A DNA stretch of 59,096 bases, taken from positions 1 to 59,096 of the forward strand of contig JAFTLJ010000007.1 of NCBI GenBank assembly GCA_017456005.1, given 5' to 3'. Positions 2,793 through 12,705 of the stretch are shown here, one piece after another. This DNA comes from Clostridia bacterium (GTDB lineage: Bacteria; Bacillota; Clostridia; Oscillospirales; CAG-272). The translations under genes and the position numbers were made by a program. The notes below the pieces were generated by a model, which saw only the letters and a list, made by a program, of their open reading frames with translations, was not told where the DNA came from and made no database searches. How positions within the stretch are numbered: the stretch's first letter is position 1; each line of letters begins with the position of its first letter.

Positions 2793-2828
2793 AAGATAGC
2801 CGAGAGCGACCAAACGGTTACTCTCGGC
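2793..2828 (-). terminator. Intrinsic terminator after the long sigma factor gene
   Basis: On the minus strand, arms CCGAGAGTAACC and GGTCGCTCTCGG close a short loop and are followed by CTATCTTTTTTT. It lies 12 bp past the sigma-factor stop codon. Confidence 0.75.
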
Positions 2829-2839
2829 GGTGGTTTTAT

Positions 2840-4429
2840 TTAGGGATTGATGCTTTTTCCTTCGACACAGAACACTCCGTTCGTCAAAGGCTTTTCAAAG
2901 TCGGGCTTATCTAAAATCCCTCTACGAATCAATTCATCGGTAACATATCCGATAATCTGATACAGATAACAGTTTACCCACTGATTGATTTGATCGTGCA
3001 GATGGTTCGGCACAAAACTTTCAAAATTCTTACGCACAGACATAATCCAGTCGGCAAGAATGTCGTTTATCTTTTCATCGGTCATATCGAACAGCGAAGC
3101 AAACTTAGCAAATTGTTCTTCCGTAAAATAAGGGATATTAAGACAATATCCATCCTCGGAGAGCGTGATCAAATTGTTTTCTATAAAGCGTGCTGCGTTT
3201 TCTTCGGTCAGAGTTTCTTTAGATATAACTCCACTGTTAATGTATTGCGATACACCGCTCTTGCACATCCAGCGCGTTCCGTTATTATGATAAATATTAT
3301 AATCAAAATACTTATTGATCCAATAATAGTATATTTGCGGTGACGGGTTGTTTTCATCGTTTGCTACATTACAACCGGAATTGTATTCAGAGCTATTTTC
3401 AGTTTTGTCTACGGTTTCTTCTACGATAAACCAACCATAGCCTCCGTCCTTTCTCGGAGGATACGGACCATTTTCAAACTTTAAGCGATTATTCTTTACA
3501 TCGCGAATTTTTCGTCTAAGCAGATATGGAACGATAATATAACCAAGCCTGCCTATACCAAAATTGTTACCGTAAAAATCAATTGCGCTGATCTTTGTTT
3601 CCGTTTCTTTTAAAATCGCTTCAAGTTTATCTGCAAGCATATTGACCACCGATACGGAAACATCCTCGGTTTGTTTTCTGTCTTTCAAGCGGAAAATAAT
3701 AAAATCAGTGGCGTATTTATTACCAACCTTACAGATAGCATCGCCGTATTCAAGTCGAGGAAGTTCGTCTTCGATATACATTGTAGGAACACCCGTGCCC
3801 ATACTAATTTCCTCTACTGTCAAAGGTTTCTCGTAAGCCGCAAGACAGATTGCTCGTGCGATTTGCGAGGATAAATATTGATGCGTATTTGCATGACCAT
3901 TGCATACAATCGTATTCCAATTGATTCTTTGATACACCTTATCCATTTTGTCTTCTCCTATCCTATCTCTGATTTTTTGGCGTCCTACATTCAGACGCCA
4001 TTTGATTGTGGTTTCGGGGAGTGAATATTTTTTTGCAAGACTTCTGACCGGTAATTCTCCAATATAGTAGTCTACAAAAATATTCCTGTACTCGGAAGAT
4101 AACGTATGTAAATACCTAAACACCATTTCATATTGCTCTTGTGTGTTGTCTTCATCAATATCGGAATAATCCGCAATATCAAAGAGTTCGTTTTCGCACG
4201 ACAGTACGATTTGATTTTTATTTCGAGCGTCAATGAAGCGCGCATATCGATTATGAGCAATTCGCCAAACCCAAGCGTCAAGCGATTCGATTTGATACTT
4301 GTTCATTCCTTCAAGAATGTGACAAACAATTTCGCTTGCAAGATCCTCAGCATCATAACGATTTGATAGCCGTTTGCAACAGAAACGAAATATTGGTTCG
4401 ATATATGGGATGATTTTGTTCTCGTCCAA
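2840..4429 (-). CDS. Sigma-70 family RNA polymerase sigma factor with ~350-aa C-terminal extension
   Basis: The first ~165 residues form a compact ECF-type sigma factor: region 2 (RLSNRYDAEDLASEIVCHIL, then DAWVWRIAHNRYARF) and region 4 (LSSEYRNIFVDYYIGELPVRSLAKKY, then SLPETTIKWRL). The remaining ~360 residues have no counterpart in ordinary ECF factors. They begin with a stretch that reads like a winged helix (TVEEISMGTGVPTMYIEDELPRL), followed by a domain I do not recognise. The start is TTG at 4429 because AGGAGG lies eight bases upstream; the upstream ATG at 4459 has no ribosome site. Large C-terminal extensions in sigma factors often act as built-in sensors or anti-sigma domains; that role here is inference. 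It is transcribed divergently from the LexA-like repressor operon. Confidence 0.85.
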   Translation of the reverse strand: MDENKIIPYIEPIFRFCCKRLSNRYDAEDLASEIVCHILEGMNKYQIESLDAWVWRIAHNRYARFIDARNKNQIVLSCENELFDIADYSDIDEDNTQEQYEMVFRYLHTLSSEYRNIFVDYYIGELPVRSLAKKYSLPETTIKWRLNVGRQKIRDRIGEDKMDKVYQRINWNTIVCNGHANTHQYLSSQIARAICLAAYEKPLTVEEISMGTGVPTMYIEDELPRLEYGDAICKVGNKYATDFIIFRLKDRKQTEDVSVSVVNMLADKLEAILKETETKISAIDFYGNNFGIGRLGYIIVPYLLRRKIRDVKNNRLKFENGPYPPRKDGGYGWFIVEETVDKTENSSEYNSGCNVANDENNPSPQIYYYWINKYFDYNIYHNNGTRWMCKSGVSQYINSGVISKETLTEENAARFIENNLITLSEDGYCLNIPYFTEEQFAKFASLFDMTDEKINDILADWIMSVRKNFESFVPNHLHDQINQWVNCYLYQIIGYVTDELIRRGILDKPDFEKPLTNGVFCVEGKSINP

Positions 4430-4515
4430 GTTTTTCTCCTCCTTTCTTCGGCGGTGCAATCATGATTACACCCTTATAGTGCATCAATATCAATTTGGAT
4501 AGGTGGTTTTATAAA

Positions 4516-4544
4516 ATTATATCATAAATTTATGAATTAGTCTA
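4516..4544 (-). promoter_or_regulatory. Promoter of long sigma factor gene with palindrome in spacer
   Basis: Minus-strand -35 TAGACT (4539-4544) and -10 TATAAT (4516-4521) are 17 bp apart. The spacer contains the perfect 14-bp palindrome TCATAAATTTATGA (4522-4535), a natural operator position for a dimeric repressor. Confidence 0.65.
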
Positions 4545-4559
4545 TACACTTCATTGCTT

Positions 4560-4601
4560 CACAAAATATTTTCATTTTACCCTCTTGACAAATATTTTGT
4601 G
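4560..4601. promoter_or_regulatory. Perfect 12-bp inverted repeat around the LexA-like promoter -35
   Basis: CACAAAATATTT (4560-4571) and its exact reverse complement AAATATTTTGTG (4590-4601) are separated by 18 bp. The right arm begins on the last base of the -35 box. A repressor or activator site is likely; it could also be read from the divergent sigma promoter 40 bp away. Confidence 0.55.
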
Positions 4602-4613
4602 CTATGTTATAAT
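4585..4613 (+). promoter_or_regulatory. Consensus sigma-A promoter of the LexA-like operon
   Basis: TTGACA (4585-4590), 17-bp spacer, TATAAT (4608-4613): a perfect consensus promoter, so the operon must be held down by repression. The -35 TTG could be mistaken for a start codon, but it has no ribosome site. Confidence 0.9.
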
Positions 4614-4617
4614 TAAA

Positions 4618-4631
4618 GAACCAATTGGCTC
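4618..4631. promoter_or_regulatory. Palindrome at predicted transcription start, probable auto-operator
   Basis: GAACCAATTGGCTC is a 14-bp palindrome with one mismatched pair. It begins 5 bp after the -10 box, where bound repressor would block initiation. The adjacent LexA/S24-type gene is the obvious candidate regulator. Confidence 0.5.
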
Positions 4632-4653
4632 ATTATATTTCGGAGGGCATTTT

Positions 4654-5271
4654 ATGAGAAGCAGAGATGAATCGCTGTTCGGCAAGATCATCGATTTTGT
4701 AAATGAATACTTTGAGGATTACGGCAGGTCTCCCTCCACTCGGGAGATTGAGCAAGGTATTGGCGCATCCCGCCCCACGATTCAGCGTTATCTCAAAACT
4801 ATGCAGGAGCAAGGCGAGATCGAATACGACGGACACCGTGGTATCATCACAAAATATATGCGAGAACTGATGGACACCAATCGTGTGCAGATGGGCAATT
4901 CCATTCCTTGCGGACCACTCACCGAGGTGACCGATGCGGAGCTTGAGCATATTCGTTTGCCCATGGCTTTGGCGGGTAGCGGAGATTTCTTCCTTCTGCG
5001 TGCAAGCGGTGATTCGATGATAAACGCAGGTATTGACAGCGGTGACCTTGTTCTTATTCGCAAACAAGAAACGGCGCGTGAGGGTCAGATCGTTGCCTTT
5101 CTCTATCAAAGTGATTGTACAACTCTCAAGCGTTATCATCGTGAGAGCGAAAGCGAGGTACACCTTATCCCCGAAAACGATTCAATGAAGCCAATTATTC
5201 TGAAAGGCGAACAGCTGAATGCTTTGAAGATCCAAGGCGTTGCCACCATGGTGATGAAGGATCTCGAATAA
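4654..5271 (+). CDS. LexA-like / S24 self-cleaving repressor
   Basis: A 205-aa repressor. Residues about 5-65 form a LexA-type winged helix (GRSPSTREIEQGIGASRPTIQRYL), and residues about 80-205 are an S24 peptidase/latch domain. The predicted self-cleavage bond is Cys86-Gly87 (SIPCGPLTE) instead of the usual Ala-Gly. The catalytic dyad is Ser121 (ASGDSM) and Lys159 (TTLKRYH). Start ATG 4654 has GGAGGG eight bases upstream. It heads a plus-strand operon whose next gene starts 14 bp later. By analogy with prophage and island repressors, DNA damage would trigger RecA-assisted cleavage and release the downstream ATPase, ART and HEPN genes. It may be the cell's only LexA, but the island setting and Cys-Gly site favour an element-specific repressor. 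Confidence 0.85.
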   Translation: MRSRDESLFGKIIDFVNEYFEDYGRSPSTREIEQGIGASRPTIQRYLKTMQEQGEIEYDGHRGIITKYMRELMDTNRVQMGNSIPCGPLTEVTDAELEHIRLPMALAGSGDFFLLRASGDSMINAGIDSGDLVLIRKQETAREGQIVAFLYQSDCTTLKRYHRESESEVHLIPENDSMKPIILKGEQLNALKIQGVATMVMKDLE

Positions 5272-5285
5272 AGAAAGGAAATGCA

Positions 5286-7466
5286 ATGAAAGAACTTATT
5301 TTTAAGAAAATCGAGAATTCTACTATCTTTGCCACAGATTATCGTAATTTTTGCATTAATAATACAATACAGTTTTCTGATAGTGGCATGGCAGTTGTAT
5401 ACGGTCCTAATGGTACTGGAAAAACCAGTTTTATAAATGTGCTTGCAGAAAACGATAACACGTCCTTTATAGCTGAACATGACGGAATACAAATACAGGA
5501 TAATTCATCTGGATTCTTCCACGTTATACTTGATCAGAACAATCGACATATCATTAGTGGAACAACAAAGGATTTTTTTCTTGGTGATAATATCCAGAGA
5601 GAATTTGAACTAAAGGAATATATAGACGAAGAAAGAACTCGTATACTCGGAGTAGTTGCCAATAATCTGAAAACCTCTTTCGGCATATCCTCTTCATCAA
5701 GCAAAATACTGAACTATGTTCAAAATTCGGATTTCAAAAAACTATTAACAGACATTTCGAACGCTCGCTCAAAAGGTGCAAAATACAAAACCGAAGAATT
5801 AATTAATATAATAAATGCGCTTCCGGCATCGGTCGTTGGAGAATATGCGGAAGAAAAACTGTCATTTGTTATCAAAGATATAAATGAAAAAGAATCCATA
5901 ATAAAAAAGATCAAGGATATCCCGCTGGATGATATAGTTGTAAATACCCATGTGCACGAAATAGAAGAAAACACCGAGGCTATAAAAATTCTTGAAAGAT
6001 TTCATACCAAAACGCAGTGCATTGTTTGTGATACTTTGGGTATTGATTCGCACCGTTTGATTGAGAAAAAGAATGCAAATCGTGAAAATGTTATGCAATC
6101 TATTAGTGACACTGTGCGTGCTGCAATAGAACATGTTATCAGCATTACCGGCATGTATGATCCATTTGAAATAAAAAATGCATTACTTGAGGCACTCAAT
6201 ACCGGAAACGCATCTCCTATTATTCGATTGCGTGAAGAATTTGAAACCTATATCTCCATTTACAATACGAAACTAATTGCAACATTGCAGGATGTCGTGA
6301 ATACGAGCGATATTGGTAACAAACTTTCGGAGTATAATCGAATTATTGCTGAACGTCCTGAAATCACTGAGGAAGATATGCTTTACATTGAAAATATCAT
6401 AAGTAATAGCATGAACAAATCTTTCAGAATTGATCGTGACGAGAATAACACCTTGAAGATTCAGCTCGCCAATGAAGATTTTCTCAACATTGACAGAAAA
6501 GAACTTCCTCTAAGCACCGGAGAGCAAAATTTCTTGTCTTTGACATTTGAATTTTTGAGAGCAAAAAATTCGAACTGCAAAATTGTGGTAGTTGATGATC
6601 CTATCTCCAGCTTCGATTCTATATACAAAAACAAAATTGTATTTGCTATGGTTAGAATCCTCAGAGAAAAGCAACGCATTATATTGACTCACAACACAGA
6701 TGTGCTTAGATTGCTGGATAGCCAATATCCTAATTGTTTTAACCTATATATTATGAACAACAAAGAGGGTGAAAGTAACGGATTTACAAAATTATCATTC
6801 AAAGAAAAGAATATGCTTATTAACCTCAAAAACTTGTTAGATGCTTTTAGAGGGGACGTATTGCGCCATATTTGCAATGTAGAAGAGTTTTTGATTTCTC
6901 TAATTCCATTTTGTAGAGGGTATGCGGGACTCATTAATGAAGCAACTATTGAGAACCAGTTGTCACAAGTAATGCACGGATACAAAAACGAAAATGTAGA
7001 TATTGCAGATATTTATATTACATTATTCGGTAATGCTCACAACACGCTCCCGACCAGCTATATTGTTAACGTTTCAGACATACTGAGAAAAAATGTTGAC
7101 ACCTTGGATATAGTTGATCCTATTGAGTATCCAGTCCTAAACAAAACACTAAAACATTCATTCTCTTATTTGCAACTTAGATTGTGGGTGGAGAAAACAT
7201 TGGTTGATAAAAAAGGTTTGAATATAACCCATCACATGCAGCTTGGCAAAATAATTGATTTGGCTTTTCCGAACGCAACAGATCCTGCAAGTATTCGCGC
7301 AAGGGTCAATCTCACTTCAAAGAAAACTTTGATAAACGAGTTCAACCATTTTGAAGGAAACCTTAGCATATTCCAACCAGCAATAGATATAACCGATACC
7401 GCTTTGTCAGATGAGAAAAATAAAATTTTGCAAATCATAGGTGCTGTAAATAGAGGTGAAATATAA
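5286..7466 (+). CDS. Zinc-hook AAA/ABC ATPase (AAA_13, RloC-like architecture)
   Basis: A 726-aa SMC/Rad50-like ATPase. Walker A GPNGTGKTS is at residues 40-48, signature LSTGEQ at 409-414, Walker B and D-loop KIVVVDDPISSFD at 432-444 and H-loop His at 469. Between the two halves lies a helical insertion whose apex carries Cys245-Ile-Val-Cys248, the CxxC of a zinc hook. This layout (short coiled coil, zinc hook, ABC head, ~250-residue C-terminal effector region) is that of RloC/PrrC-like anticodon nucleases and related AAA_13 proteins. The C-terminal part has helices with LRLWVEKTL and NEFNHF that faintly recall a HEPN fold; I cannot confirm a nuclease site. Fourteen bp follow the repressor and 18 bp precede the ART gene, so all are probably co-expressed. 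Likely role: sensing damaged or foreign DNA and triggering an effector. Confidence 0.8.
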   Translation: MKELIFKKIENSTIFATDYRNFCINNTIQFSDSGMAVVYGPNGTGKTSFINVLAENDNTSFIAEHDGIQIQDNSSGFFHVILDQNNRHIISGTTKDFFLGDNIQREFELKEYIDEERTRILGVVANNLKTSFGISSSSSKILNYVQNSDFKKLLTDISNARSKGAKYKTEELINIINALPASVVGEYAEEKLSFVIKDINEKESIIKKIKDIPLDDIVVNTHVHEIEENTEAIKILERFHTKTQCIVCDTLGIDSHRLIEKKNANRENVMQSISDTVRAAIEHVISITGMYDPFEIKNALLEALNTGNASPIIRLREEFETYISIYNTKLIATLQDVVNTSDIGNKLSEYNRIIAERPEITEEDMLYIENIISNSMNKSFRIDRDENNTLKIQLANEDFLNIDRKELPLSTGEQNFLSLTFEFLRAKNSNCKIVVVDDPISSFDSIYKNKIVFAMVRILREKQRIILTHNTDVLRLLDSQYPNCFNLYIMNNKEGESNGFTKLSFKEKNMLINLKNLLDAFRGDVLRHICNVEEFLISLIPFCRGYAGLINEATIENQLSQVMHGYKNENVDIADIYITLFGNAHNTLPTSYIVNVSDILRKNVDTLDIVDPIEYPVLNKTLKHSFSYLQLRLWVEKTLVDKKGLNITHHMQLGKIIDLAFPNATDPASIRARVNLTSKKTLINEFNHFEGNLSIFQPAIDITDTALSDEKNKILQIIGAVNRGEI

Positions 7467-7484
7467 GGTTGGAGGTTGATTATT

Positions 7485-8276
7485 GTGCTAAATAGAATTC
7501 GAAAAAACATTCAATCCAATTATACCTATTGTGATATCATATACAAGCCCACCGCGAAGCAAATTTCATTTTTAGATGAAAAAATAATGGCACCGATACT
7601 TGAGGATAAGAATGAATACCGACTTTATTATCGTATCTTAAAAGCCGAAGAAGCAATGTTATGCGGAGAATGGGAATCAGTTAGTCAATATATTTGCGGT
7701 TATGCGGAAACGGGTGCTATTGTTTTGCAAATCGGAAAACACATTATTCCCAAACCGATGCAATATCAAATTGCGATTGATCTATATACAGACAAAGGTG
7801 ATATGTATAGCGAAATAATGGATATTGTAAAAAATGGAAAGGCGTATCGCCCGGACGATTGGAACAAAGAAATGCCGGAATGTGTGCGTAACGATACCAC
7901 CTTCACCGTTTATCGGGCTGGGGGAGAAAATATCGATAATGCAGCCGAATGTATGTCGTGGACACTGTGGCGTGATGTCGCCGAGTGGTTTGCCGAGCGA
8001 CATGAGTATTACAGGCAAGGAACACAGCACTTATATAAGGCGACTATTTCCGCCGATGATGTAATAGCGTTTACAAATTCAAGGCAGGAGTTTGAGATCA
8101 TACAATATCGTGGAGTCAAAGATATTGAGGAAATCCCTCGTTTAGGTGTGTCTGATAAATACAAGGACTTGACCGCTGTGTCAACTTTCAATTTGGATGA
8201 GATAGATGAAAAAAGCAGTCTTGCCGTTGACCTATTTTCACGTTGGTATTGGCAAAACAAAAACGGCGAAGCATAA
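7485..8276 (+). CDS. Putative ADP-ribosyltransferase (R-S-E class)
   Basis: A 263-aa protein with a C-terminal half that reads like a mono-ADP-ribosyltransferase. Visible are Arg144 (TFTVYRAG), the Ser-Trp-Thr motif at 158-160 (CMSWTLWRDVAEWFA, where the ART fold places S-T-S), and Glu202-Phe-Glu204 (SRQEFEII), matching the ExE motif whose second Glu is catalytic. Spacing and order R, S, ExE fit the family. Residues 1-130 have no motif I recognise. I place the start at GTG 7485 because GGAGG ends nine bases upstream; a TTG at 7476 abuts the ribosome site. The gene sits in the operon between the zinc-hook ATPase and a sigma-4-like HTH gene. It would transfer ADP-ribose from NAD+ to an unknown protein or nucleic acid; function is inferred from motifs only. 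Confidence 0.62.
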   Translation: MLNRIRKNIQSNYTYCDIIYKPTAKQISFLDEKIMAPILEDKNEYRLYYRILKAEEAMLCGEWESVSQYICGYAETGAIVLQIGKHIIPKPMQYQIAIDLYTDKGDMYSEIMDIVKNGKAYRPDDWNKEMPECVRNDTTFTVYRAGGENIDNAAECMSWTLWRDVAEWFAERHEYYRQGTQHLYKATISADDVIAFTNSRQEFEIIQYRGVKDIEEIPRLGVSDKYKDLTAVSTFNLDEIDEKSSLAVDLFSRWYWQNKNGEA

Positions 8277-8294
8277 ATAGAGGAGGTAAAACTA

Positions 8295-9167
8295 TTGGCA
8301 GAAGAAAGAACTATTCAACAAAACGCGGATGAATTTGTAACCGCACTTATAAATACCATCGGCAGCGGAACTGTGCAGGAGGTAGTAGATAAAAACCGCG
8401 ACGATGCGCTTGACATTTCAAATATTGCGGTCAATCTTCCCCTCAAAGAAATGCCGCCCGAAGTGGTAAAGTATCTCAAAGACCTCACGCAGACCGATAA
8501 AGGCACAAGTATGTATACACGCCACGATCTTAGCTTGGCGTTTCAGCCCTCTCATTTTTCGGGCGAAGATAATCCGCTAATGTTGTTTTATAAGGCGTTT
8601 TACGATACCGTTACTTATTACACTACCCTTATCCAAGGCACACCCGAGGTTCGTGATGCGCTGATAAAGGCAATGGCAGATAAGGGGTATAATGAGGATA
8701 ATATTGATGAGTTCTTAAAACGAGAATGGGATATCAATGCTTATTTGATGAACCTTCCGCAGATTGCTGAGATTTTCAAAGAGTTACCCGATTATTCCGA
8801 TTACAATCACGGAAAACCTAACAACTATTCTTTGCAAAACGCTAAACGCAAAATCGAGCATATGAGTGGCGGTCAGCTTGTAGAAAATGCATCCATTGAG
8901 CGCGGCGGTCCCAAAGATGCAAGCGGTCAATACACACCATATCCTTTGGATGATGCAACCGACGTTACCTCAGAGGTCATCGACAAAGTGTATCTTGAAC
9001 AATGTCTTGCTCTGCTTTCGCCCGAAGATCGTGAACTTTTGGTACGTCATGCTAACGGTGAGACCTTTACCGCGCTTGCAAAGGACTATGGATATGCCAA
9101 TGCAAGCGGTGTTAGAAAACGTATTGAGAGAATTAAAAAACAGATAACTAATGCATTTGCTGAATAG
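8295..9167 (+). CDS. Unknown protein with C-terminal sigma-region-4-like HTH
   Basis: A 290-aa acidic protein. The last ~60 residues (LSPEDRELLVRHANGETFTALAKDYG and following) resemble the region 4 helix-turn-helix of sigma-70 factors, but no region 2 is present, so it cannot act as a complete sigma factor. The N-terminal ~220 residues are helical and unrecognised. Start TTG 8295 is supported by GAGGAGG about nine bases upstream. It lies 18 bp after the ART gene and 9 bp before the HEPN-like gene. Possible roles are a DNA-binding antitoxin or co-regulator for the operon; neither is proven. Confidence 0.75.
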   Translation: MAEERTIQQNADEFVTALINTIGSGTVQEVVDKNRDDALDISNIAVNLPLKEMPPEVVKYLKDLTQTDKGTSMYTRHDLSLAFQPSHFSGEDNPLMLFYKAFYDTVTYYTTLIQGTPEVRDALIKAMADKGYNEDNIDEFLKREWDINAYLMNLPQIAEIFKELPDYSDYNHGKPNNYSLQNAKRKIEHMSGGQLVENASIERGGPKDASGQYTPYPLDDATDVTSEVIDKVYLEQCLALLSPEDRELLVRHANGETFTALAKDYGYANASGVRKRIERIKKQITNAFAE

Positions 9168-9176
9168 GAGATAAAT

Positions 9177-9848
9177 ATGGCAATTAATAGTATCAGTAGT
9201 GATGTAAAATTTCCGGATATGAATTTTTACAATATGAGCAATCCCGGTGAGATGGCATTGTATCTTGCTCACTGTGATTTTTATCCGTTCCAAAGCGTAT
9301 TAAGGAACAATCAACTTGCATTAGATGCACTATCACAAGGATATATAGAAATGCTACAAAAGGCGCAAGCCAACGATGATTTCTATACAGAATCTTTTGC
9401 TATGACAAGTGGGACATTACACAATTCTCGTGTCAGTTTGCTAACTTATTATTCCTTGGTTTTAACTATGGTATCAATCTTGGAAGAATCAGTAAATACG
9501 TTATGTAGAGTATATTACAATATGCTAACGCTGGATAAACAGCTTAGTGAAACAAAGGGGCGAGGATTAGAACGTGCAGCAGAATACTTAAAAAAAGAAG
9601 TAGGTATTGAAGGGTTTACTTCAGACCCCCAATGGGAATATATTACAACTATTCGTGATGCAAGAAATATGATTGTTCATAACGGCGGACGAGTAATCAA
9701 AGATTTTGATAAATTTGATAAATTCAAAATTGGATATAGAGAAGAAGACCACCAATTATATTTTGAATACAGCGATATTGAAAAAATGTATAATGCCATT
9801 CTTGAATATATCGACAGGGCTTTCAGACTTGTTCCCACAAAAAAATAA
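9177..9848 (+). CDS. HEPN-like protein, candidate RNase toxin
   Basis: A 223-aa, all-helical protein. Near residues 158-170 is TTIRDARNMIVHNGG, containing RNMIVH (Arg163 to His168), which fits the R-x4-6-H catalytic motif of HEPN ribonucleases; the typical polar residue after Arg (Asn164) is present. AGGAG overlaps the stop codon of the preceding gene, showing translational coupling. HEPN proteins are common as toxins and as effectors in defence islands, which fits this setting next to a zinc-hook ATPase and a putative ART. Some HEPN proteins are non-catalytic scaffolds, so RNase activity is inference. A small hairpin follows the stop codon. Confidence 0.65.
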   Translation: MAINSISSDVKFPDMNFYNMSNPGEMALYLAHCDFYPFQSVLRNNQLALDALSQGYIEMLQKAQANDDFYTESFAMTSGTLHNSRVSLLTYYSLVLTMVSILEESVNTLCRVYYNMLTLDKQLSETKGRGLERAAEYLKKEVGIEGFTSDPQWEYITTIRDARNMIVHNGGRVIKDFDKFDKFKIGYREEDHQLYFEYSDIEKMYNAILEYIDRAFRLVPTKK

Positions 9849-9849
9849 T

Positions 9850-9872
9850 TCTCGCACATTTGCGAGATTTTC
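9850..9872 (+). terminator. Short hairpin after HEPN gene, weak terminator
   Basis: TCTCGCA, loop CATT, TGCGAGA then TTTTC. The right arm overlaps the -35 box of the recombinase promoter, so it may separate the operon from the recombinase gene. Confidence 0.4.
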
Positions 9873-9888
9873 ATCACTGTGTTAAAAT
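9860..9888 (+). promoter_or_regulatory. Candidate promoter of serine recombinase
   Basis: TTGCGA (9860-9865), 17 bp, TAAAAT (9883-9888), 21 bp upstream of the recombinase start codon. Confidence 0.5.
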
Positions 9889-9909
9889 GAGAGCGAAAGG
9901 GGTGATTAT

Positions 9910-11382
9910 ATGACAGGGGTTATTTACGCACGATATTCTTCGGACAACCAACGTGAGGAATCAATAGAAGGTCAGCTTCGTGAATGCACGGCGTTTGCAC
10001 AAAAGAACGATATAACGATTATTGAGCATTATATAGACAGAGCATATTCAGCAAAGACGGACAACCGTCCTGAGTTTCAAAGAATGATACGCGAGAGTGC
10101 ACGAAAAGCATATGATGTGGTAATCGTATGGAAACTCGACAGATTTTCAAGAAACCGTTTCGACTCCGCAAAATACAAAGCCGCTTTAAAAAAGAACAAA
10201 ATTCGCGTGATTTCCGCTACCGAAGCAATTTCAGACGGTGCAGAAGGAATAATTCTTGAATCTGTATTGGAAGGCATGGCAGAATATTATTCGGCCGACC
10301 TTTCTGAAAAAGTTACACGAGGTCATACGGAAAATGCGCTCAAATGTCAGTTCAACGGCAGCGTTGTTCCTTACGGCTATGTAATTGATAAAGAAAAGCA
10401 TTATCAACTCGATCCCGAAAAAGCGCCCATCGTTCTTGAAATCTTCAAACGATACACAAGTGGTGAAACAATTACCGCTATTATAAAAGACCTCAATGCA
10501 CGAGGATTGCGAACAGCTAAAGGAAACGAATTCAACAAAAACAGCCTTCACCATATGTTGAAAAATCGTAATTATATCGGTGAATATCGCTACAAGGATT
10601 TCGTTACACCCGGTGGGGTACCTGCTATTGTTCCCGAAGACATCTTCAATCGCGCAGTTGCACTTATTGAAAGCAATAAACACGCTCCCGCGAGGAAGAA
10701 AGCAAAAGAGGATTATTTGCTCACCACAAAGCTTTTCTGCGGAAATTGTCTTGCCATGATGATTGGCGAGAGCGGTCAGAAAAGCAACGGGAATATTTAT
10801 CGCTATTACAAGTGCGCAGGTGCCAAGAAGCATGTTTGCGACAAGAAAACCGTTCGCAAGGAATGGATAGAGGATATCGCGCTGCAGTTGACGATGAAGA
10901 TATTGATGAGTGATGAGGATCTTCAAAAAATCGCTGATAGAATTATGGAACTTCAAAAGAGTGAAAATACGCTAATCCCCGCACTTGAACGACAACTTGA
11001 AGATGTTCGTGCCTCCATTGATAATATTCTTAAAGCTATCGAAATGGGGGTCTGCACACGTTCCACAAAATCCCGTCTCGAAGAACTTGAGGCGGAGGAA
11101 GAACGTATCAAAGGGGATATTTGCCGTGAGCAGTTGGATTCCCGACTTGTCACCGAAGATCAGATTTGGTATATCTTTGATAAGTTCCGTCAAATGGATT
11201 TATCAATGCCCAAGCAACGCCAACGTCTGCTTGACAGTTTCCTGCAATCTATCGTTCTTTTTGATGATAAACTCATTATCTCGTTTAACTACCGTAGTCA
11301 ACCCGTTACCATTATGCTCGATCAGTTGGTCGATTTTATTAACGGTAGCGGTTCGGATTTGGTAAGTGCTGCTTCACCATAA
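9910..11382 (+). CDS. Large serine recombinase (site-specific integrase)
   Basis: A 490-aa member of the large serine recombinase family. The N-terminal resolvase domain (1-150) has YARYSSDNQ with nucleophile Ser10, and VWKLDRFSRNRFD with the conserved Arg residues. The Recombinase domain (about 155-260) is followed by a zinc ribbon (CGNC near 275 and a second Cys pair near 300-312), a coiled coil (about 335-400) and a C-terminal tail. Start ATG 9910 has GAAAGGGGTG upstream. Such enzymes integrate and excise phages and mobile elements at short att sites normally next to the gene, so it probably mobilises the island to its left. The change of base composition after 11,420 is consistent with one island end being just downstream. 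Confidence 0.92.
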   Translation: MTGVIYARYSSDNQREESIEGQLRECTAFAQKNDITIIEHYIDRAYSAKTDNRPEFQRMIRESARKAYDVVIVWKLDRFSRNRFDSAKYKAALKKNKIRVISATEAISDGAEGIILESVLEGMAEYYSADLSEKVTRGHTENALKCQFNGSVVPYGYVIDKEKHYQLDPEKAPIVLEIFKRYTSGETITAIIKDLNARGLRTAKGNEFNKNSLHHMLKNRNYIGEYRYKDFVTPGGVPAIVPEDIFNRAVALIESNKHAPARKKAKEDYLLTTKLFCGNCLAMMIGESGQKSNGNIYRYYKCAGAKKHVCDKKTVRKEWIEDIALQLTMKILMSDEDLQKIADRIMELQKSENTLIPALERQLEDVRASIDNILKAIEMGVCTRSTKSRLEELEAEEERIKGDICREQLDSRLVTEDQIWYIFDKFRQMDLSMPKQRQRLLDSFLQSIVLFDDKLIISFNYRSQPVTIMLDQLVDFINGSGSDLVSAASP

Positions 11383-11384
11383 AC

Positions 11385-11416
11385 AAAAGCAGATGCGCAA
11401 GCATCTGCTTTTTTGT
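11385..11416 (+). terminator. Intrinsic terminator of serine recombinase
   Basis: AAAAGCAGATGC, loop GCAA, GCATCTGCTTTT followed by TTGTTT, two bases after the stop codon. Confidence 0.85.
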
Positions 11417-11555
11417 TTATATATAGGATAAGCAGGGAATCGAACAGAGTGCGTTTTTTTATTTTTTGAAACTTTTTATGATTGATATGTCAAAATTCAA
11501 CAAAAAACGATTATTATTTTTGTTATCCAACTTCCAAAAAAATACAATATAAAAG
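11417..11555. other. Probable right-hand junction region of the island
   Basis: A 139-bp AT-rich non-coding stretch between the recombinase terminator and the serC promoter. A serine-integrase att site is expected about here, but no repeat partner is visible in the window, so the exact edge cannot be fixed. Confidence 0.35.
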
Positions 11556-11584
11556 TTGACAAAGATTGTATTTTGGTATACAAT
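11556..11584 (+). promoter_or_regulatory. Promoter of serC operon
   Basis: TTGACA (11556-11561), 17 bp, TACAAT (11579-11584). The leader to the start codon is about 30 nt and has no visible riboswitch. Confidence 0.85.
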
Positions 11585-11622
11585 CAAGAATATCTTTTTT
11601 ATTTTTGCAGGAGGAAATAATT

Positions 11623-12705
11623 ATGGCAAGAATATACAATTTCAGTGCAGGCCCTTCTATGCTCCCCGAAGAGGTGCTAAAGACAGCGGCGGCAGAAATG
11701 CTTGAATACGGCGCAACGGGTCAATCCGTTATGGAAATGTCCCATCGCTCCAAGGAATATCAAGCAATAATCGATGAAGCGGAAGCAGATCTCCGCGAAA
11801 TAATGAACGTTCCCGAAAATTACAAGGTGCTCTTTTTACAGGGCGGCGCTTCAACACAGTTTGCAATGGTTCCGATGAACCTTATGACGAAGAACGGGAA
11901 AGCAGACTATATTGTAACAGGTCAGTGGGCTAAGAAAGCATATAAAGAAGCCGCACGCTATGGCGCGGCACGCGTTATTGCCTCCTCAGAAGACAAAACA
12001 TTTTCTTATATCCCCGAAGTTACCCCCGATATGGTAGACCCCGAAGCAGATTACGTTCACATTTGCATGAACAATACAATATACGGCACAAAATGGCAGA
12101 GCCTGCCCGAAACGGGCAACGTGCCGCTTGTGGCGGACATTTCCAGTTGCATTCTTTCAGAGCCCATAGACGTTTCTCGCTTTGGTGTGCTCTATGCCGG
12201 TGCACAGAAGAACGTAGCTCCCGCAGGTCTTACAATAGTTATTATAAGAGAGGACCTTATCGGCAATGCTATGGATATAACCCCCACTATGCTCAATTAC
12301 GCGACACATGCGGAAAACGGCTCTATGTTCAACACGCCCCCTTGCTACACCATCTATATCGCAGGGCTCGTGTTCAAATGGATAAAGAGCCTCGGCGGGC
12401 TTGAAGAAATGAAGAAGATCAACGTGGAAAAAGCAAAGCTTATCTATGATTTTCTCGATTCCTCCAAGCTTTTCAAGGGCACTGTCGTGCCCGAAGCACG
12501 CTCGCTTATGAACATTCCGTTCGTAACAGGAGATGCAGAGCTTGACGCAAAATTTGTGGCAGAGGCAAAAAAAGCGGGCTTTGTAAACCTCAAGGGCCAC
12601 CGCAGCGTGGGCGGCATGCGCGCCTCTGTATATAACGCGATGCCTGTGGAGGGTGCACGCGCGCTCGTTGAATTTATGAAAAAATTTGAAGAGGAAAACC
12701 TGTAA
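11623..12705 (+). CDS. serC: Phosphoserine aminotransferase
   Basis: PLP enzyme converting 3-phosphohydroxypyruvate and glutamate to O-phospho-L-serine (serine pathway step 2). The 360-aa length is that of the family. The N-terminus MARIYNFSAGPSMLP is diagnostic, GGAST at 74-78 contacts the cofactor phosphate, Asp172 (LVADISS) holds the pyridine nitrogen and Lys196 (YAGAQKN) forms the internal aldimine. ATG 11623 is preceded by GGAGG; an upstream in-frame TTG lies within the promoter. Its stop codon overlaps the serA start (TAATG), giving translational coupling. Confidence 0.97.
   Translation: MARIYNFSAGPSMLPEEVLKTAAAEMLEYGATGQSVMEMSHRSKEYQAIIDEAEADLREIMNVPENYKVLFLQGGASTQFAMVPMNLMTKNGKADYIVTGQWAKKAYKEAARYGAARVIASSEDKTFSYIPEVTPDMVDPEADYVHICMNNTIYGTKWQSLPETGNVPLVADISSCILSEPIDVSRFGVLYAGAQKNVAPAGLTIVIIREDLIGNAMDITPTMLNYATHAENGSMFNTPPCYTIYIAGLVFKWIKSLGGLEEMKKINVEKAKLIYDFLDSSKLFKGTVVPEARSLMNIPFVTGDAELDAKFVAEAKKAGFVNLKGHRSVGGMRASVYNAMPVEGARALVEFMKKFEEENL

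What the first reader, a model, noticed from the sequence alone, without database searches (positions are those of the whole stretch)
4430..9848. Candidate new defence/conflict operon: LexA-like switch + zinc-hook ATPase + ADP-ribosyltransferase + sigma-4-like HTH + HEPN
Five plus-strand genes spaced 9-18 bp apart (14 bp after the repressor) combine a damage-responsive repressor, an RloC-like zinc-hook ATPase, a putative R-S-E ART, a partial-sigma HTH protein and an R-x4-H HEPN protein, next to a large serine recombinase. ATPase sensor plus two different candidate effectors under a LexA-type switch is not a combination I know. Motifs are seen; system-level function is inference.
Basis: partly seen in the sequence, partly recalled or inferred. 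Interest (0 to 1): 0.88.

Follow-up and report, generated by a model that had tools for sequence, protein, structure and literature searches.

The report
LexA-gated RloC tRNA-nuclease island
A small, probably mobile gene island in a bacterium of probable class Clostridia puts a predicted tRNA-cutting, DNA-break-sensing suicide enzyme, plus three further possible defence genes, behind a switch that looks built to open when DNA is damaged.

Summary
The five tightly spaced plus-strand genes are real: perfect sigma-A promoter at 4585-4613, terminator at 9850-9867. The main correction is that the "sensor ATPase" carries its own effector. It meets every RloC feature I could test: split ABC ATPase, CX2C, 726 aa and R632-x3-E636-x51-H688. 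R/E/H and CxxC are kept in 19 of 19 near-full-length sequences (window included). RloC is a known DNA-break-activated anticodon nuclease.

The five-gene set is not conserved. Among 23 homologous loci the LexA-like gene recurs once (L005). ART, HTH and HEPN recur at none (18 of 23 hold at least 1 kb downstream). RloC relatives sit in type III R-M loci, beside an XRE-IrrE gene, in prophage-like contigs, or alone.

ART (R-S-ExE, 6 of 6) and HEPN (RNxIVH, 10 of 10, five nearly identical) motifs are conserved, but no fold could be tested. The LexA-like protein keeps a Cys-Gly cleavage site and Ser/Lys dyad. A 12-bp inverted repeat overlaps the -35; one arm recurs upstream of the L005 lexA.

Most likely: a mobile LexA-RloC module that accreted extra cargo, a new variant of a known kind. 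I found no report of LexA-linked RloC in the papers searched.

The parts
4560..4601 (.). Candidate operator: perfect 12-bp inverted repeat CACAAAATATTT (4560-4571) / AAATATTTTGTG (4590-4601), second arm overlapping the -35/spacer
   Evidence: only exact 12-bp inverted repeat (gap up to 40) in 4441-4654; 12 of 5000 first-order Markov simulations gave one; in the 641,263 bases of loci held then, the 12-mer occurs otherwise only in copies of this locus (L001, L036, L043, L050) and once in L005 (position 1075), upstream of its lexA-like gene. Post hoc.
4585..4613 (+). Promoter TTGACA-17-TATAAT, extended -10 TG
   Evidence: 12 of 12 consensus, the only such site in 4400-11650
4654..5271 (+). LexA-like repressor (205 aa): wHTH + S24 autopeptidase; cleavage site C86-G87, S121, K159
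   Evidence: Peptidase_S24 5.6e-20; TIGR00498 100.7 bits, below cut-off 110.95; alignment with L005, L047 and the genome's own LexA; LexA structures
5286..7466 (+). RloC-family ATPase/anticodon-nuclease candidate (726 aa): Walker A GPNGTGKT (40-47), CIVC zinc hook (245-248), LSTGEQ signature (409-414), VVVDDPISSFDS (434-445), R632-x3-E636-x51-H688
   Evidence: motif definition from PMC2610378 (passages)
7485..8276 (+). Putative R-S-ExE ADP-ribosyltransferase (263 aa): R144, S158-W159, R200-x-E202-x-E204
   Evidence: these residues invariant in 6 of 6 aligned sequences (window plus five at 20-33% identity); no Pfam ART match, no meaningful PDB match; fold not tested
8295..9167 (+). Protein with C-terminal sigma-region-4-like HTH (residues about 218-288), N-terminal 210 aa unassigned
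   Evidence: TIGR02989 6.4e-5, sigma70-ECF 0.0051; one relative near a serine recombinase in G827; two Mycobacteroides plasmids match residues 218-288 at 4e-3
9177..9848 (+). HEPN protein, R163-N-M-I-V-H168
   Evidence: PF18735 0.0034 (below cut-off); PADLOC RTasHEPN 7.5e-4; motif in 4 of 4 rows and 6 of 6 viral-contig relatives
9850..9867 (+). Intrinsic-terminator-like stem-loop closing the operon
9910..11382 (+). Large serine recombinase with terminator-like stem-loop 11385-11412; probable mobility gene of the island
   Evidence: Resolvase 2.8e-29, Recombinase 3e-17; phrog_95 integrase 1.1e-114
11413..11535 (.). Right edge of the island; homology to the serC locus of relative G005 begins at 11535
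4460..4546 (.). Left edge: homology of the divergent sigma-like gene to relatives ends at 4535-4546
   Evidence: L062 4535, L063 4537, L065 4545, L066 4546; L064 ends at 4444; L067 matches only 4179-4285

Best explanation
A small island, probably mobile, carries a two-tier, DNA-damage-gated tRNase defence. Tier 1 is transcription: a LexA-like repressor (Cys-Gly cleavage site, Ser/Lys dyad) sits first in the operon, binds an inverted repeat over its own promoter and keeps the operon low until damage or phage replication activates RecA and the repressor cuts itself. Tier 2 is post-translational: the operon's main product is an RloC-family protein whose zinc-hook ABC ATPase senses DNA ends and releases its own C-terminal HEPN-type anticodon nuclease, stopping translation. 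ART, HTH and HEPN are co-transcribed accessory cargo: two further candidate toxins and a regulator, recruited into this copy and not required for the core pair. Shown: gene order, motifs and their conservation, promoter-like site, inverted repeat, lack of conservation of the five-gene set in what was searched. Inferred: RecA-triggered cleavage, operator function, tRNA as target, mobility, roles of ART, HTH and HEPN.
For: RloC defining motif, CX2C and size met (for the definition); R/E/H with spacing 50-52 and CxxC in 19 of 19 sequences (window, 16 of the 23 loci, L032, L033; L012 lacks its N-terminus); of the 7 partial loci, 3 reach back far enough and keep the triad, and 7 keep the H block. 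Purified G. kaustophilus RloC needs its ATPase and linear DNA, and the DNA-break inducer NAL activates A. baylyi RloC in vivo (PMC3874168, passages). S24 catalytic residues conserved, with a Cys-Gly site unlike the genome's own LexA. LexA-RloC pair recurs in L005, which also holds a MobL relaxase, with a TTGACA-17-TATAAT promoter and one copy of the 12-mer. The window and L005 ATPases group together, support 89/77, inside a 99/98 set with L006. Another member, L017, lies behind an XRE plus IrrE-peptidase gene, a different regulator type. Own-genome parallel: a LexA-like gene directly ahead of a UvrD-like helicase (by eye). The operon is low in GC (ATPase 0.346, HEPN 0.341) against 0.478 for window 12706-59096.
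Against: LexA-like gene upstream at only 1 of 15 other loci with a full-length ATPase and upstream DNA, so LexA control is not a family trait. L047 lacks the 12-mer and L005 holds one arm only, 70 bp above its -35. INEFNHFE, around H688, was one of six seed words of the scan, so H-block conservation is partly by construction; R632, E636, CxxC and the viral-contig copies (seeded elsewhere) are free of this. No ACNase activity or RecA dependence tested. The best Pfam AAA_13 stretch is residues 407-503, not the C-terminus. The two LexA-like proteins share only 31-32% identity. ART/HTH/HEPN could instead be the functional unit.
Confidence: 0.58

Rival explanations
1. Accretion only: RloC, ART, HTH and HEPN are independent cargo genes that happen to share a promoter in a mobile island, and the LexA-like gene is the element's own mobility regulator. 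There is no system beyond each part.
For: ART, HTH and HEPN are absent next to the other 23 ATPase loci as far as their DNA is held. Each is found without the others elsewhere: ART in L080, L081, L083; HTH near a serine recombinase in L084; HEPN on plasmids, by annotation, in one Bacillus phage and in what look like prophage cargo spots, by eye. GC differs gene by gene, 0.34 to 0.48.
Against: One promoter-like and one terminator-like site, 9-18 bp spacing, and LexA-RloC recurring at 61% (ATPase) and about 31% (LexA) identity in another element.
Confidence: 0.3
2. Five-gene integrated defence: ATPase senses, ART and HEPN execute, HTH regulates.
For: Operon anatomy; conserved catalytic motifs in ART and HEPN.
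Against: No second example in any search made; the ATPase has its own effector triad.
Confidence: 0.1
3. R-M guard: this RloC lineage is a backup effector of restriction systems and acts in trans with the genome's R-M enzymes. The LexA link is incidental.
For: Same family between DUF4391 and a DNA methylase, with RhuM and type III res, in L021; DUF4391 also in L007, L009, L018; HNH endonuclease before it in L010, ResIII helicase before it in L014. An hsdR-like gene exists in the own genome (L047, by eye).
Against: No R-M gene was recognised by eye among the window ORFs listed (above 14 kb only ORFs of 240 aa or more). In A. [quoted passage not shown]
Confidence: 0.12

Closest known systems
RloC (Davidov and Kaufmann 2008; Klaiman et al. 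2013)
   Same: ABC ATPase split by a CX2C insert, C-terminal R-x3-E-x36-52-H, 658-897 aa, some members (8 of 73) linked to type I or III R-M loci (PMC2610378, passages)
   Different: Here the gene is second in a LexA-like-led operon with three extra genes; its C-terminus (SKKTLINEFNHFEGN) is near invariant in the relatives found; tRNA cleavage untested
PrrC / EcoprrI
   Same: ATPase plus the same nuclease triad (PMC2610378, passages)
   Different: PrrC lacks the zinc hook, is 341-416 aa and is held by type Ic R-M; none of that here
LexA / UmuD-type S24 regulators
   Same: wHTH plus S24, Ser/Lys dyad, autocleavage site
   Different: Cys-Gly instead of Ala-Gly; scores under the LexA equivalog cut-off; the genome has a separate true LexA at 203.6 bits
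Damage-linked regulators of defence loci (CapW/BrxR WYL, CapH-CapP; recalled; WYL paper PMC9122601 seen in search listings only)
   Same: A stress-responsive repressor in front of a suicidal defence gene (recalled)
   Different: Repressor here is of the S24/LexA class and the effector is RloC-like
RiboL-PSP-type HEPN proteins
   Same: R-N-x3-H motif, about 220 aa, weak PF18735 hit
   Different: Below family cut-off; stand-alone

Membership tests
RloC | ABC ATPase motifs (Walker A, signature, Walker B/D-loop) | tested here: met
   GPNGTGKT, LSTGEQ, VVVDDPISSFDS; GTGK, S410-x-GEQ and D437-D438-P invariant in 17 of 17 aligned
RloC | CX2C zinc-hook in the insert | tested here: met
   C245/C248; CxxC in 19 of 19 (C[IV][IV]CD in 17, CLVC in L032 and L033)
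RloC | C-terminal Arg-X3-Glu-X36-52-His | tested here: met
   R632, E636, H688, spacing 51; 19 of 19 with spacing 50-52; H block partly biased by a seed word
RloC | Size 658-897 aa | tested here: met
   726 aa
RloC | Coiled coil flanking the hook; HEPN fold of the C-terminus | not tested
   Structure prediction switched off; no coiled-coil program run
RloC | Excision of tRNA wobble nucleotide, activation by DNA ends | not testable with these tools
   Bench assay
PrrC | No zinc-hook, 341-416 aa, linked type Ic hsd genes | tested here: not met
   726 aa with CxxC; no hsd gene recognised by eye among the listed window ORFs
LexA equivalog | TIGR00498 cut-off 110.95 bits | tested here: not met
   100.7 bits, 100.4; true LexA elsewhere at 203.6
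S24/LexA-like autoproteolytic regulator | Cleavage site, Ser and Lys residues | tested here: met
   C86-G87, S121, K159; S and K invariant in 4 of 4, Cys-Gly in 3 of 4, the true LexA having Ala-Gly
R-S-E ADP-ribosyltransferase | R, S-x-S/T, ExE motifs | tested here: met
   Invariant R, S and ExE in 6 of 6; that these are ART signatures is recalled
R-S-E ADP-ribosyltransferase | ART fold or profile match | tested here: inconclusive
   No Pfam ART family for any of 6 members; PDB profile search gave two chains of one protein at E about 0.05, outside the motif region
HEPN RNase | Rx4-6H motif with polar residue after R | tested here: met
   RNxIVH in 4 of 4 and 6 of 6 (RN[FMC]IVH was a seed of that scan)
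Sigma-70 factor | Regions 2 and 4 | tested here: not met
   Only weak region-4-like hits, no region 2

The most novel reading that the evidence does not exclude
A mobile module in which a LexA-like autoproteolytic repressor (transcription) and a DNA-end-sensing zinc-hook ATPase (activity) form a two-key lock on an anticodon nuclease, with an ART and a second RNase released by the same signal, so that one damage event triggers three different blocks on the infected cell.
Probability: 0.25. Interest if true: 0.72.

Novelty: new variant of a known kind. Interest (0 to 1): 0.47.

Why it matters
How cells keep suicidal anticodon nucleases silent without an R-M partner is a live question for RloC (an internal ATPase switch is the published answer, PMC3874168 passages). 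A LexA-like repressor as first gene of an rloC operon, seen in two different elements, suggests a second, directly testable layer: transcriptional gating by DNA damage. The relatives come from drafts labelled Bacillota, Bacteroidota, Synergistota, Spirochaetota, Elusimicrobiota, Melainabacteria and others (titles; single contigs of metagenome bins may be misassigned). With their near-invariant C-terminal block they also give a clean family for structure and substrate work.

Tried and rejected
Rejected: conserved five-gene system. Rejected: ATPase as pure sensor. Rejected: LexA-like gene as the host's own LexA. Rejected as RloC: the Chelativorans plasmid ATPase, which aligns at the ATPase core but shows no nuclease triad. 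No empty site found: none of the six fetched sigma-gene neighbourhoods holds serC, and the two serC neighbourhoods looked at (G005 19 kb, G004 4 kb) do not align to the window left of 11535 and 11600; so the left edge may be the end of the sigma unit and not an insertion site. Led nowhere: viral-contig scans with ATPase, HTH, ART, A1 and the L003 ART (0 relatives); plasmid search with the L017 ATPase and phage search with the L009 ATPase at 1e-60 and island DNA against plasmids: no match; degenerate DNA scan for the C-terminal block: 0; HTH in phages: 0. Not done: coiled-coil prediction, any fold, att-site definition, comparison with the G. kaustophilus RloC sequence itself (not looked for by name). 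One genome-contig scan only, seeded by six exact peptides of the window protein, so divergent relatives are under-sampled.
Full report
Observation. The ORFs, strands and spacings are as stated, with Shine-Dalgarno-like stretches by eye. One 12-of-12 promoter (4585-4613) and one stem-loop (9850-9867) bracket the five genes; the recombinase behind has its own terminator-like stem-loop at 11385-11412. The LexA-like protein most likely starts at ATG 4654 and the ART at GTG 7485. GC is 0.484, 0.346, 0.399, 0.432 and 0.341 for the five genes, 0.422 for the recombinase and 0.478 for window 12706-59096, which would fit a mosaic acquired piece by piece (inference).

Place. The window is a whole contig of a 2.12-Mb draft genome of 101 contigs. 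Class Clostridia is inferred: G880, of the same class, has a contig of the same length (32,971) as the Oscillospiraceae record that gave L010. Homology to the serC locus of relative G005 begins at 11535. The divergent sigma-like gene 2840-4459 has 79-81% relatives in G003, G004, G005 and G021, and a 94% match over 344 aa at a contig end of G022. In four of the six fetched neighbourhoods the DNA match runs to 4535-4546; in L064 it stops at 4444 and L067 matches only 4179-4285. The island therefore spans about 4546-11535. No empty site was seen in the neighbourhoods fetched, so the left edge could also be the end of the sigma unit.

The ATPase is RloC. PMC2610378 (passages) describes RloC by ABC motifs, a CX2C hook in an insert, a C-terminal Arg-X3-Glu-X36-52-His and 658-897 aa. 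The window protein has all of these: 726 aa, C245/C248, R632, E636, H688 with spacing 51. A genome-contig scan gave 23 loci. I aligned the 16 that hold (nearly) the whole gene plus the window (L012 lacks its N-terminus) and added two viral-contig copies (L032, L033; the third, L034, nearly repeats L032). R/E/H spacing is 50-52 and CxxC is present in 19 of 19. Of the 7 partial loci, L020, L022 and L023 keep the triad, the other four begin beyond R632, and all 7 keep the H block. Caution: INEFNHFE was one of the six seed words, so the H block is partly conserved by construction; R632, E636 and CxxC were not seeds, and the viral copies were seeded elsewhere (SFDSIYK, KKTLINE). The block LTSKKTLINEFNHFEGNLSIFQPAIDI around H688 is near invariant in the set. 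PADLOC's candidate family PDC-S06 also matches it (1.6e-14). The HEPN review (PMC3710099, passages) files the PrrC/RloC nuclease in the HEPN superfamily and notes R-M operons and RhuM neighbours, which I see in L021. The link to tRNA cleavage is by family, not tested here.

Neighbours. With the window's LexA, ATPase, ART, HTH, HEPN, recombinase and sigma proteins as tblastn queries (E up to 1e-3) against the 23 loci and L003, LexA hit only L005, ART only L003, the recombinase only a short stretch of L010, and HTH, HEPN and sigma nothing. Of the 23 loci, 18 hold at least 1 kb downstream of the ATPase and 15 hold at least 400 bases upstream of a full-length gene; LexA is upstream at 1 of those 15. 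Other contexts: DUF4391 before the ATPase in L007, L009, L018 and L021, with methylase, RhuM and type III res after it in L021; HNH endonuclease in L010; ResIII in L014; XRE-IrrE in L017; DUF1003 in L006. Relaxases lie downstream in L005, L010 and L020. L032-L034 look like P2-like prophages (by eye).

Wider sampling. Genomes with a match, own genome included: ATPase 1 of 146; HEPN 1 of 295; ART 1 of 398; ATPase profile 2 of 391, the second being G880; HTH 2 of 226; ART profile 7 of 226, of which G884 and G767 match only the HD part of the profile; HEPN profile 1 of 226. The neighbourhoods of four ART relatives and the HTH relative (L080-L084, 6 to 14 kb) show, at tblastn 1e-3, none of the other operon genes except a recombinase match beside the HTH relative.

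ART and HEPN. Six ART sequences (window plus five at 20-33% identity) keep R144, S158-W159 and R200-x-E202-x-E204; three are fused to an HD domain. That these are R-S-ExE signatures is recalled; no profile or structure match supports it. The HEPN protein keeps RNxIVH in 4 of 4 rows and in 6 of 6 viral-contig relatives, five of them nearly identical and one with a split frame; the motif was a seed of that scan. Those six sit in prophage cargo positions by eye, which would suit a defence role. Eight plasmid records and one Bacillus phage also hold partial HEPN relatives.

The switch. The LexA-like protein has C86-G87, S121 and K159. The genome has a true LexA (203.6 bits) and other S24 matches. 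One of these (L047) stands directly before a UvrD-like helicase (by eye). The only exact 12-bp inverted repeat in the intergenic region overlaps the -35; 12 of 5000 Markov simulations produced one. In the 641,263 bases of loci held then, the 12-mer otherwise occurs in copies of this locus and once at L005:1075, 70 bp above the TTGACA-17-TATAAT of its lexA-like gene. This is post hoc: L005 has a single arm and L047 none.

Mechanism and rivals. Purified RloC needs its ATPase and linear DNA, and a DNA-break inducer activates it in vivo also in R-M mutants (PMC3874168, passages). A LexA-like first gene adds a transcriptional key turned by the same stress. I rate this two-key LexA-RloC core with accessory cargo at 0.58, pure accretion at 0.30, R-M guard at 0.12 and the integrated five-gene system at 0.10; the figures overlap, since a LexA-RloC core with accreted cargo shares ground with the first rival and does not exclude R-M contacts.

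Print. Searches for RloC with LexA (4 papers; in the three whose passages I searched, no LexA-RloC gene link appeared; the fourth, PMC12452197, was seen in the listing only), anticodon nuclease with LexA and SOS (3 papers, listing only apart from one passage of PMC3978071), ART with HEPN and RloC (1 paper, PMC3710099, passages) and LexA with defence terms (8 listed; 15 of 70 listed; listings only) showed no report of a LexA-linked rloC. RloC itself is an established entry in surveys (PMC12447246, passages).

Noticed in passing
window 2799-4546: The divergent ECF-sigma-like gene belongs to a large paralogous family (9 matches in the own genome, 10 in G005; 32 of 59 genomes searched have one). 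Short conserved stretches (2799-2839 and 4502-4546) also match beside other paralogues in relatives (L063, L065, L066): shared promoter/terminator or mobile-unit ends.
   Followed up: partly
L047 4448-5288 (G000:C35) and L086 1-2420 (G000:C64): Same genome, by eye: LexA-like gene with Cys-Gly site, own promoter-like site, directly followed by a UvrD-like helicase and preceded by an hsdR-like gene and an SprT-like gene; a near-identical end of a second copy begins contig C64.
   Followed up: partly
L029 3611-5068, L068 2198-3661, L070 2018-3538: ART-like domain fused to an HD domain on Paenibacillus and Brevibacillus plasmids, near a plasmid-borne ligA and a 3'-5' exonuclease.
   Followed up: no
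L088-L092 around 4824-5477: HEPN relatives in what looks like a P2-like prophage cargo position (by eye), with differing neighbours (AAA plus HNH-like in L091, P-loop NTPase in L092); the L092 copy has a split frame.
   Followed up: partly
L021 4105-16270: RloC-type gene embedded between DUF4391 and the methylase of a type III R-M operon that also carries RhuM.
   Followed up: partly
L003 1-2431: ART relative downstream of a cytosine-5 DNA methylase-like gene (by eye) on a 4-kb faecal phage-labelled contig.
   Followed up: no
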